This document shows, piece by piece, positions 42,155-47,867 of a DNA stretch of 64,000 nt (the stretch's first letter is position 1; each line of letters opens with the position of its first letter). The translations under genes and the position numbers were made by a program. The notes under the pieces were generated by a model. The model saw only the letters and a program-made list of their open reading frames with translations. It was not told the origin of the DNA and made no database searches. Source of the DNA: Candidatus Roseilinea mizusawaensis (lineage in GTDB: Bacteria > Chloroflexota > Anaerolineae > J036 > Brachytrichaceae); NCBI GenBank assembly GCA_016841965.1, contig JAEANN010000047.1, forward strand, positions 1-64,000, given 5' to 3'.

Positions 42155-42447
42155 GCGCGCCCTAATCATGCTTGACTGGTTGGTGGCCAAGTGTTACACT
42201 CGGCCCGTCACCGCGTTGTGAAGAGATATCGCAGTGGTTTGGCGTGTGACTACCTGCTCACACAGGCGCCCCGGTTGCGCCTCGCCCACGTGAGACCGTA
42301 AAGGAGGTGATCTCCAGCCGCACAAGTTGTGTAAATCCAAGCAACTCGAGCCTTGCATTTCATGTGAATCTCAGCTAATAGTCGTTATCTAGCTCTATTG
42401 AGTCCGCTATCTTCAGATTCTGTTCAATTTTGGAGGAGATCAAAAGC

Positions 42448-43938
42448 ATGTTTGGAACACGAGGAGCCAGCAATCAAAGGCTGGCGTTGATCAGCGGGGC
42501 GATCGTTGCGATGGTGCTCACAGCGTGCGCCGGCGCGCCGGCGCCCACGCAGGCGCCAGCAGCTCAGGCGCCCACAGAGGCGCCAGCAGCTCAGGCGCCC
42601 ACAGAGGCGCCAGCAGCTCAGGCGCCCACAGAGGCGCCAGCAGCCCAAGCACCAGCGGGGAGCGGCGAGTCGACATTCATTAGTTGGTACCAGTACGACG
42701 AAACCAACACCGACGAAAAGTCCGACGAGCGCGTAGGCAATGCTTACTTGCGCAGAACCATTCCGCTGTTCAACGAAGAATTCAAGGGCAAGTACAAGTG
42801 GGTTAACCAGCCTCAGGCCTGGGACAAAATGGTGCTGAATCTGGTGGCAGCCGTGCAGGGCGGCGGTGAAGTACCGGATGTCATGCAGGTTGACGCATCG
42901 GCTGTAGCGACGACTCTGTACCAGAATGGCGCGATGGAAGATCTGACCGACTGGATCAAGGCACAGCCTTGGTTCAGCGACATTGACCCTGGCGCAATCA
43001 GTGCTTGCACCGGTCTGGACGGCAAAATCTACTGCGTGCCGATTGCCGAGTCGCCGCAACTGGTTTTCTACTGGTCAGACCACTTCCCGAACGGCTATCC
43101 CAAGACCCCTGAGGAGTTCATGACTCAGGCCGAGGCGCTAAAGCAAAAAGGGATATACGCAATTACCTTCTTTGGGTCAACCGATTTCGATGGCTCTGCA
43201 GCAACCCGCTTCTTCTTCACCGCGCTGGCATCGTTCGGCGGCGGATACGATGATGGCAAGGGCAACATGCTGCTGAACAGGCCGGAGAATGTCAAAGCTG
43301 TAGAGTTCATCCGCGAGATCGTGGCCAAGGGCTACGCACCGGAGATCGTGTTCGCCGGCAAGTTCCAGGAAGAGGAGCCGATGAAGACAGCCGAAGCCGC
43401 CTCGTTCCCCACCGGCATTTTCGGCTATCGCTACGTGAACCCGCTGCGCGCGCCCAGCGGCAAAGAGTACAACACCAAGACCGAAAAGGACATGATCGAT
43501 GCCATCGAAGCGGGCGATGTGAAGATTTCGTCTTTCCTCGCGCCAGCGGGCAGCAAGCCGAGCTGCGGTCTGGGTGTGGCCGGTTTGATCATTCCCAAGG
43601 GCGCAAAGAATCCCGAGGGCGCAAAGGCCTACATCAACTGGATCATGGATCAGCGCAATAATGCCGACTGGGTCATTGGTCCGGGCGGCGGTGTGCCATC
43701 GGTGAACACAACCCGCCAGGCAGATGCTTTCCAAAGCACGTTCTACAAGCAGGCGATCGAGGCAACTGCCGGCCTGTGCCGACCCTGGCAGGGCACGCTG
43801 ACCAATCCGCCGGAAGCCCAGAAGATCATTGCCACAGTGATCTACAAGCTCATCAAGGAAGACCCAACCGCAGACATCGCCACCGAACTGCAGAAGGCCC
43901 AGGACGAATACAACCGCCAGTACGCGCCAGGTTCATAG
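42448..43938 (+). CDS. ABC sugar-transporter substrate-binding lipoprotein
   Basis: VLTACAG lipobox; ISWYQYDETN...PLFNEEFKGKYKWVNQPQAWDKMVLNLVAAVQGGGEVPDVMQVDA; GGAGGAG RBS. Confidence 0.92.
   Translation: MFGTRGASNQRLALISGAIVAMVLTACAGAPAPTQAPAAQAPTEAPAAQAPTEAPAAQAPTEAPAAQAPAGSGESTFISWYQYDETNTDEKSDERVGNAYLRRTIPLFNEEFKGKYKWVNQPQAWDKMVLNLVAAVQGGGEVPDVMQVDASAVATTLYQNGAMEDLTDWIKAQPWFSDIDPGAISACTGLDGKIYCVPIAESPQLVFYWSDHFPNGYPKTPEEFMTQAEALKQKGIYAITFFGSTDFDGSAATRFFFTALASFGGGYDDGKGNMLLNRPENVKAVEFIREIVAKGYAPEIVFAGKFQEEEPMKTAEAASFPTGIFGYRYVNPLRAPSGKEYNTKTEKDMIDAIEAGDVKISSFLAPAGSKPSCGLGVAGLIIPKGAKNPEGAKAYINWIMDQRNNADWVIGPGGGVPSVNTTRQADAFQSTFYKQAIEATAGLCRPWQGTLTNPPEAQKIIATVIYKLIKEDPTADIATELQKAQDEYNRQYAPGS
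42540..42651 (+). repeat. 27-nt tandem repeat encoding (APTEAPAAQ)n linker
   Basis: GCGCCCACAGAGGCGCCAGCAGCTCAG repeated ~4 times. Confidence 0.92.
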
Positions 43939-46007: not shown

Positions 46008-46436
46008 CTACTTCAATAGCGTGCGCAACAGCGTCAGGAGCGCGCCGGCCAGACAGATGGTCCCGGCGAGTTGCAGGCCGTTGATCAGCAGCAGCGTGGC
46101 GCAGATCAGCAACGCGACAAACACCAACGCCCATGTCAGCCGCGCCAGGCTATTTTCGATCCGGCGCAAGTCGCCGGTTGAGGACTCGCTCAACTGGGCG
46201 CGGATCTCCAACTGGCCGGCCAGCGCGCGCGAGAGAAACGTGTCGGCCTGCACCGGCAGTTGCACCGTCAGGCGCAACAGCCTGATCGCCTCGGCAAGCA
46301 CATCTTGGGCCGATCGCTGCCCCTGTTTGCTGAAGATGCCCTCGGCAAACGGCTGGATTTCCTTCCAGGCGTTGAACGCGGGGTCGAGCGCCGTGCTCAT
46401 GCCACTCAAGATATTGACTGCTCGGCCCAGATACAA
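46008..46436 (-). pseudogene. Detached C-terminal part of UbiB/ABC1 kinase-like gene
   Basis: LYLGRAVNILSGMSTALDPAFNAWKEIQPFAEGIF continues the UbiB fold; same frame as 46473-47867. Confidence 0.75.
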
Positions 46437-46530
46437 AATATTCTGCGGAATCTGAAACTCCTTTAGGCCCCCCTACAGCTCCCAGCGTGTATCCCGGCCC
46501 AGATACAAAATATTCTGCGGAATCTGAAAC
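46423..46530. repeat. 36-bp perfect direct repeat (46423-46458 and 46495-46530) flanking a 36-bp unique segment
   Basis: cggcccagatacaaaatattctgcggaatctgaaac present twice with 72-nt offset. Confidence 0.95.
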
Positions 46531-47867
46531 GGCAGAGACGACAACAGGTCACGGAACTCGACGGCAAACGTGTACATCTCGTCGAACTCCACGTCCTTCA
46601 GATCAGTTGCCGTCATGCCCCAGAAGCGGTCGAACAACAGGGCGATGGCCTGCTCGATGCGGGTCGTGTCTGCGCCGGGTAGGAAGAAGCCCATGCGTTT
46701 GGCAGCCGCCGTCAGCCGGCGCGCGTCCTTCAGACTGACAGCAATGATGAACTCCTTCAGCTCCTGCATGTATTCCGGCGTGACGCGCCCCACCATGCCG
46801 AAATCCACATAGGTCAGGCGAAAGGGTGTCGGCGCGCGCCCGTCTGCTGTTTCTGGCGCATCCTCAACCGGTACATTCAGACGACGCGCCGTCTCCACAT
46901 CCAGCGGTTGCACAAACAGGTTGCCGGGATGTGGGTCGGCGTGAAAGAAGCCATCCACAAAGATCTGCTGCAGGTAGGTGCTGAACAACTTGCGGGCCAC
47001 AGCTTGCCGCGAGACGCCGGCGCTTTCCAGCCCGGCGTAGTCGGTGATCTTGATGTCTTCGACGTTTTCGAGCACCAGCACGCGCCGCGTGGTGTATTCA
47101 TGATACGGTTTCGGCACGCGCACCTGCGGGTCGCCGGCGAAATTGCGGGCAAACAGATCCGCGTTGCGCGCCTCCTGCTCGTAGTCCAGCTCTTCCAGCA
47201 CGCCGTCGGCAAATTCCTGGATCAAGGCGTCCAGATTCGCCCGCCGGCGGATCGGCCCATACAGCTTGAGCCAGCGTGCAATCGTCTTGAGCGAACGCAG
47301 GTCAACCGCGACGATCTCATCGAGAAAGGGGCGCTGCACCTTGAGCACCACACGAATGGCGCGGGGGACGCTATTTGCGCTGGGCAGTGGATGTAGTTGC
47401 GCCCGATGCGCCTGGCCGAACGAAGCCGCCGCAACCGGCTCGCGCTCGAAGTCGTCGAAGATGTTATCAACCGGCCGGCCCAGCTCGGCCGCGATGATAC
47501 CGGCGATCGTGTCGTATGGTTCAGCCGGCACAGCATCCTGCAAGCCGCTCAGTTCGGCAATCACCTGCTGCGGCATGATGTCCACGCGGCTGCTCAGGAA
47601 CTGGCCCAGCTTGATCCACACGCCGCCCAGGTCCACCGCCAGCATGCGAAAAGCGCGCGCCAGCTTGACGAAGCGCGCCATGCGCGTGCGCTCCACACGC
47701 GCGCGCCCAACCACGCGCACCAGAATCAACTCCCACCAGACGAAGCCGGCAATCATCTTGAAGCCGAACCACAATGCGCGCCGCGCGCGCCGCTGCAACA
47801 GGCGCGGATCGGCGTGGGCCGAAACCACCGAAGAGGGCTGGTCGTTGGACGCGCGTGGAGTGGTCAT
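46473..47867 (-). CDS. UbiB/ABC1 (AarF) kinase-like protein, prematurely terminated
   Basis: KLGQFLSSRVDIMPQQVIAELSGLQDAVPAE, VVLKVQRPFLDEIVAVDLRSL, FHADPHPGN, YVDFGMVG; ends ...ILYLGRDTRWEL*. Confidence 0.9.
   Translation of the reverse strand: MTTPRASNDQPSSVVSAHADPRLLQRRARRALWFGFKMIAGFVWWELILVRVVGRARVERTRMARFVKLARAFRMLAVDLGGVWIKLGQFLSSRVDIMPQQVIAELSGLQDAVPAEPYDTIAGIIAAELGRPVDNIFDDFEREPVAAASFGQAHRAQLHPLPSANSVPRAIRVVLKVQRPFLDEIVAVDLRSLKTIARWLKLYGPIRRRANLDALIQEFADGVLEELDYEQEARNADLFARNFAGDPQVRVPKPYHEYTTRRVLVLENVEDIKITDYAGLESAGVSRQAVARKLFSTYLQQIFVDGFFHADPHPGNLFVQPLDVETARRLNVPVEDAPETADGRAPTPFRLTYVDFGMVGRVTPEYMQELKEFIIAVSLKDARRLTAAAKRMGFFLPGADTTRIEQAIALLFDRFWGMTATDLKDVEFDEMYTFAVEFRDLLSSLPFQIPQNILYLGRDTRWEL

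What the first reader, a model, noticed from the sequence alone, without database searches (positions are those of the whole stretch)
46423..46530. UbiB gene split in frame by a 36-bp direct repeat flanking a 36-bp segment with a TAG stop
Seen directly: CGGCCCAGATACAAAATATTCTGCGGAATCTGAAAC occurs at 46423-46458 and again at 46495-46530, a 72-nt (24-codon) offset. The minus strand reads ...PFQIPQNILYLGR-DTRWEL*-GGLKE-FQIPQNILYLGRAVNILSGM..., so both halves of the UbiB/ABC1 kinase are in the same frame, interrupted by one TAG. The 36-nt insert carries AAAGGAG just before the second copy, so the C-terminal half (46008-46436, TTG start) could be independently translated. Removing 72 nt would restore a normal UbiB. 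Explanations include a revertible duplication (phase-variation-like), amber readthrough, a two-ORF protein, or an assembly error.
Basis: partly seen in the sequence, partly recalled or inferred. Interest (0 to 1): 0.72.

Follow-up and report, generated by a model that had tools for sequence, protein, structure and literature searches.

The report
CRISPR spacer misinserted into ubiB gene
The duplicated stretch that breaks this gene has the exact footprint of the cell's CRISPR machinery pasting a 36-letter spacer into the wrong place, which duplicated the 36-letter target site and left a stop codon in the ubiB gene; a second such scar occurs elsewhere in the same genome.

Summary
In detail: an exact 36-bp direct repeat (46423-46458, 46495-46530) flanks a 36-nt insert with an in-frame TAG in the genome's only close UbiB homologue. 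The genome encodes Cas1, Cas2 and Cas4 with type I-B and III-B effectors. Its arrays have 36-nt repeats, 35-40-nt spacers starting with G or C, and a 71-76-nt period. The ubiB unit is 36 + 36 nt. On the minus strand the duplicated unit starts GTTTCA, as do two of the three native repeats, and the insert starts with G. All ~28 relatives that could be aligned across the site have a single copy. In 2.24 Mb (58%) of the genome only one other clean repeat-insert-repeat unit was found, with the same geometry (36 + 35 nt, upstream of a GH4-family gene). Both sites resemble native leader-repeat junctions (9 of 14 positions). No source was found for the insert; ten genuine array spacers also had no significant phage match. 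Phase variation, readthrough and a two-ORF design are unsupported. Assembly error cannot be excluded without reads. Off-target integration is known (Nivala 2018); this is a natural, gene-breaking example.

The parts
46495..46530 (-). Upstream (leader-side) copy of the 36-bp target site: GTTTCAGATTCCGCAGAATATTTTGTATCTGGGCCG on the minus strand
   Evidence: exact repeat; starts GTTTCA like the native repeats of C32 and C48; single copy in all aligned relatives
46459..46494 (-). 36-nt inserted segment (spacer) GGATACACGCTGGGAGCTGTAGGGGGGCCTAAAGGA, carrying the in-frame TAG
   Evidence: absent from the rest of the genome and from ~400 class-level genomes; length and first base within the native spacer range; unrelated to its flanks
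46423..46458 (-). Second copy of the 36-bp target site (duplicated on integration)
   Evidence: 100% identical to the first copy
46531..46536 (-). Leader-like flank TCTGCC in front of GTTTCAGA; 9 of 14 positions match a native leader-repeat junction
46473..47867 (-). Truncated UbiB/ABC1 ORF (464 aa): keeps the ABC1 domain, loses the C-terminal region
   Evidence: Pfam PF03109 E=1.5e-67
46473..46475 (-). TAG stop supplied by the inserted spacer
46008..46436 (-). Orphaned C-terminal part of UbiB with a hydrophobic stretch; probably not translated independently
   Evidence: TTG about 21 nt after GGAG

Best explanation
A CRISPR adaptation complex (Cas1-Cas2, probably with Cas4) of this Thermoflexales-like Chloroflexota bacterium integrated a 36-bp prespacer into ubiB instead of a CRISPR array. 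On the minus strand, joining at TCTGCC|GTTTCA (which mimics the leader-repeat junction) and 36 bp downstream, followed by gap filling, duplicated the 36-bp target on both sides of the new spacer. The gain is 72 nt, so frame is kept, but the spacer carries TAG and truncates UbiB. Shown: anatomy, empty sites in relatives, matching dimensions and border in the host's own arrays, adaptation genes present, a second scar of the same kind in the genome. Inferred: that this Cas1-Cas2 did it, that the spacer is foreign, and that the scar makes no working crRNA.
For: (1) Duplicated unit is 36 nt; native repeats are 36 nt, because the next base varies between G and C. (2) Insert is 36 nt; native spacers are 35-40 (36 in 7 of 31), all starting G or C; insert starts with G. 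(3) Unit starts GTTTCA, as do the native C32 and C48 repeats; GTTTCA occurs at 1.7e-4 per position; the 14-nt junction matches 9/14, reached by 0.6% of positions. (4) Cas1 with conserved catalytic segments, Cas2, Cas4, I-B and III-B effector genes. (5) Empty site in all aligned relatives. (6) A second clean unit, 36+35 nt, period 71, junction 9/14, single copy in congener G001; no other clean unit in 2.24 Mb. (7) In vitro off-target Cas1-Cas2 sites resemble leader-repeat junctions over about 5+5 bp (PMC6895254).
Against: No protospacer found in phages, plasmids, IMG/VR or genomes, though ten genuine array spacers also had no significant phage match. Beyond GTTTCA the unit does not resemble the native repeat (7 of 36 identities). 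At the second site the match is in the flank and at TCAA, and its boundary is ambiguous by one base. No reads were available.
Confidence: 0.86

Rival explanations
1. Non-CRISPR duplication with filler: a replication or end-joining accident (microhomology-mediated template switching) duplicated 36 bp and trapped 36 nt of filler.
For: Duplications with filler occur in bacteria (general knowledge); the copies are perfect, so the event is recent.
Against: Needs coincidence of repeat length, spacer length, GTTTCA border and first base. The only two clean units in 2.24 Mb both have the array period. The filler has no local or genomic template.
Confidence: 0.07
2. Assembly or consensus artefact (chimeric join or strain mixture).
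For: Draft of 59 contigs; a contig end (C48) falls at a CRISPR repeat, so short-read assembly trouble exists. No reads available.
Against: The 108-bp unit would fit within one ordinary short read; the insert is absent elsewhere in the assembly; an artefact would not be expected to reproduce CRISPR dimensions and junction at two places.
Confidence: 0.05
3. Functional device: phase-variable switch, amber readthrough or two-ORF UbiB.
For: 72 nt keeps frame; 36-bp direct repeats could recombine or slip back to the intact gene.
Against: Absent in every relative aligned; no conserved recoding context; TTG about 21 nt from GGAG.
Confidence: 0.02

Closest known systems
Non-canonical (off-target) spacer integration / neo-CRISPR loci (Nivala, Shipman, Church 2018, Nat Microbiol 3:310; cited in PMC11788318; the paper itself is not held, content from memory)
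   Same: Spacer flanked by a duplicated, repeat-length, non-CRISPR target that resembles the leader-repeat junction; natural cases were proposed there for Yersinia pestis and Sulfolobus islandicus (from memory)
   Different: Chloroflexota lineage with a I-B/III-B locus and 36-nt repeats; inside a coding gene, which it truncates; two scars in one genome; empty sites shown in relatives
Canonical CRISPR array (host repeats on C3, C32, C48)
   Same: 36-nt repeat, 35-40-nt spacer, GTTTCA start, about 72-nt period
   Different: Repeat sequence unrelated after position 6; no leader; one spacer; 3' end lacks the native ACTGAAA
Casposon or transposon target-site duplication
   Same: Direct repeats flanking an insertion
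   Different: Insert is 36 nt with no coding capacity or inverted ends; a 36-bp duplication is far longer than usual transposon duplications (general knowledge)

Membership tests
Off-target Cas1-Cas2 integration (neo-CRISPR scar) | Target duplication of the host's CRISPR repeat length | tested here: met
   36 vs 36 nt
Off-target Cas1-Cas2 integration (neo-CRISPR scar) | Insert within the host's spacer length range | tested here: met
   36 nt; host 35-40 nt
Off-target Cas1-Cas2 integration (neo-CRISPR scar) | Integration point resembles the native leader-repeat junction | tested here: met
   GTTTCA 6/6; 9/14 over the junction, reached by 0.6% of positions
Off-target Cas1-Cas2 integration (neo-CRISPR scar) | Host encodes an adaptation module | tested here: met
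   Cas1, Cas2, Cas4 on C32
Off-target Cas1-Cas2 integration (neo-CRISPR scar) | Ancestral empty site with a single copy | tested here: met
   About 28 relatives
Off-target Cas1-Cas2 integration (neo-CRISPR scar) | Insert derived from a prespacer (phage, plasmid or self DNA) | tested here: inconclusive
   No source found; ten control array spacers also without a significant phage match
Off-target Cas1-Cas2 integration (neo-CRISPR scar) | Cas1-Cas2 catalyses the event | not testable with these tools
   Needs biochemistry
Functional CRISPR array | Repeat shares the native repeat sequence (needed for processing by host Cas6) | tested here: not met
   7 of 36 identities; 3' end CTGGGCCG vs TACTGAAA
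Phase-variable repeat switch | Both states observed, or the repeat conserved in relatives | tested here: not met
   Only the empty state in relatives; population reads unavailable

The most novel reading that the evidence does not exclude
Off-target spacer integration is a recurrent natural insertional mutagen in this Chloroflexota lineage: a relaxed I-B/III-B adaptation complex writes spacers into genes and promoter regions using little more than a few bases of the leader-repeat junction, leaving possibly revertible scars (two in 58% of one genome).
Probability: 0.45. Interest if true: 0.78.

Novelty: new member of a known kind. Interest (0 to 1): 0.62.

Why it matters
Off-target spacer integration is known mainly from overexpression and in vitro work, so a clean natural case that breaks a gene, with the empty site in sister species and a second scar in the same genome, shows that CRISPR adaptation can carry a mutational cost in nature. 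It gives a simple signature (clean duplication of repeat length, insert of spacer length, border like the leader-repeat junction) that can be scanned for in any genome with CRISPR. It bears on how new CRISPR arrays arise and on how specific Cas1-Cas2 is in hosts other than E. coli.

Tried and rejected
Rfam scan of the window: nothing. Source of the insert: own genome with 3 mismatches, phages, IMG/VR full length and 19-20-mers, ~400 class-level genomes, GTDB genome contigs 22-mer, plasmids: nothing significant. Array spacers against the genome in hand: only two partial low-complexity matches, so no PAM could be derived. A symmetric GAAAC...GTTTC pattern search was uninformative. Other repeat pairs that first looked similar (L177:17177, L151:19231, L141:10480, L125:13110, L177:15424, L174:12887) are tandem or low-complexity repeats. 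Independent translation of the C-terminal half: judged unlikely (RBS-start distance about 21 nt). Nivala 2018 is not held.

Full report
Observation. The 36-bp repeat, the 36-nt insert, the shared frame and the TAG are all present at the stated coordinates. The 5' ORF (46473-47867, minus, 464 aa) carries a full ABC1/UbiB domain (PF03109, E=1.5e-67). The 3' ORF (46008-46436) is the rest of the protein. The genome has no second close UbiB; the only other match is a weak 30% fragment with a stop.

Ancestral state. A 60-genome relatives search gave open, uninterrupted UbiB frames in the family. Aligning a construct of the flanks plus one copy to about 28 relative loci gave matches across the site with a single copy and no insertion there, e.g. 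91% identity in G001 and 82% in G002 (alignment). The 72 nt are therefore a recent gain in this genome; the two copies are still identical. Nearest named relatives are MAGs of Thermoflexales / Anaerolineae, Chloroflexota.

Why CRISPR adaptation. The anatomy repeat36-insert36-repeat36 is that of one CRISPR unit, so I looked for the host's CRISPR. There is one Cas1 (C32). Its locus encodes type I-B (Cas8b-like, Cas7, Cas5, Cas3) and type III-B (Cmr1, Cas10, Cmr3, Cmr5, Cmr6 and another RAMP) effectors, a Card1-like CARF protein, then Cas1, Cas2, Cas4 and an array. The Cas1 alignment to PDB 4n06 keeps the conserved E (SIEGRA), H (GFIHAD) and acidic (LDLIEEF) segments; calling these the catalytic residues rests on general knowledge of Cas1. 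Arrays lie on C3 (29 repeats), C32 (4) and the end of C48 (1). After 36 conserved nucleotides the next base is G or C, so the repeat is 36 nt; spacers are 35-40 nt (36 in 7 of 31) and always start with G or C. Read on the minus strand, the ubiB unit is 36 nt, starts GTTTCA exactly like the C32 and C48 repeats (C3 has GCTTCA), and its 36-nt insert starts with G. Beyond the first six bases the unit does not resemble the native repeat. That is what one expects of a site chosen by its resemblance to the leader-repeat junction: Kim et al. 2019 (PMC6895254) report that off-target Cas1-Cas2 integrations in vitro mimic that junction over about 5 bp on each side, and that the second cut is set by a ruler.

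Statistics. GTTTCA occurs at 1.7e-4 per position in this genome. The 14-nt junction score of 9 seen at the ubiB site is reached by 0.6% of positions. I scanned 2.235 Mb (58%) of the genome for exact or near-exact direct repeat pairs and asked whether each insert is related to its flanks, as in a tandem duplication. Besides CRISPR arrays, contig-edge pairs and tandem or low-complexity repeats, two clean units remained: ubiB (36 + 36) and C45:332012 (36 + 35; exact match 37 nt, so the boundary is ambiguous by one base). Both have the array period (71-76). The second lies directly upstream of, and touches the start of, a GH4-family gene; its left border GATAGGCA|TGGTCAAC resembles the C48 leader-repeat junction CAATAGGCG|GTTTCAAG, again 9 of 14, in one of the two possible registers. 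Congener G001 has a single copy there; G002 is too divergent upstream to judge. These tests were chosen after seeing the anatomy, so no combined p-value is claimed, but the coincidences are largely independent of one another.

Mechanism. Most likely a captured prespacer was joined first at TCTGCC|GTTTCA on the minus strand and then 36 bp downstream on the other strand; gap repair duplicated the target. Shown: structure, polarity, host machinery, empty sites, second instance. Inferred: enzyme identity and foreign origin. The insert has no match in the genome, phages, plasmids, IMG/VR or other genomes. Ten genuine array spacers from the same host also lacked significant phage matches, so this does not count against it.

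Consequences. UbiB is truncated after the ABC1 domain and loses its C-terminal region, which includes a hydrophobic segment. AAAGGAG lies about 21 nt from the TTG, so independent translation is unlikely. The scar should not make crRNA, since it lacks the native repeat's 3' end (inference). Slippage between the 36-bp copies could delete exactly 72 nt and restore the gene (inference).

Comparison with the known. Non-canonical spacer integration in vivo was described in E. coli by Nivala et al. 2018 (cited in PMC11788318, and PMC9456107; paper not held), with, from memory, putative natural cases in Yersinia pestis and Sulfolobus islandicus. The present case belongs to that kind. What it adds is a different phylum and system type, disruption of a coding gene, direct empty-site evidence from sister genomes, and two scars in one genome.

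Limits. 42% of the genome was not scanned. No reads were available, so assembly error is unlikely but not excluded. Cas1-Cas2 causation is inferred from footprint and context.

Noticed in passing
L155:12012-12119 (= G000 contig C45:332012-332119, + strand): Second clean repeat-insert-repeat unit: 36-nt duplication (37 nt exact) with a 35-nt insert CGCCTGTATTCCGTGTCTTCAGGCGTGGCATCTTT, abutting the start of a GH4-family gene; single copy in congener G001; insert found nowhere else in 60 relatives.
   Followed up: yes
L036 (C3:106652-108735) spacers 16 and 28: Two array spacers partly match (93% over 29-31 nt) the host's own intergenic heptamer repeats (TGAGTGA-type), suggesting some self-derived spacers.
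   Followed up: partly
L005:1120-1372, L036, L037 leaders: All three native leaders keep GGTCATTTGACC ending 27 nt before the first repeat; ubiB has TGACC ending 16 nt before its integration point (11 bp, about one helical turn, closer). Possibly chance.
   Followed up: no
G000 contig C48 end (L037:9936-9971): Contig ends one base after the first repeat of a CRISPR array with an intact leader, so a third array is cut off by the assembly.
   Followed up: no
window 42540-42644: About four 27-bp tandem copies encoding the APTEAPAAQ linker of a sugar-binding-like lipoprotein (ORF 42430-43938 +).
   Followed up: no
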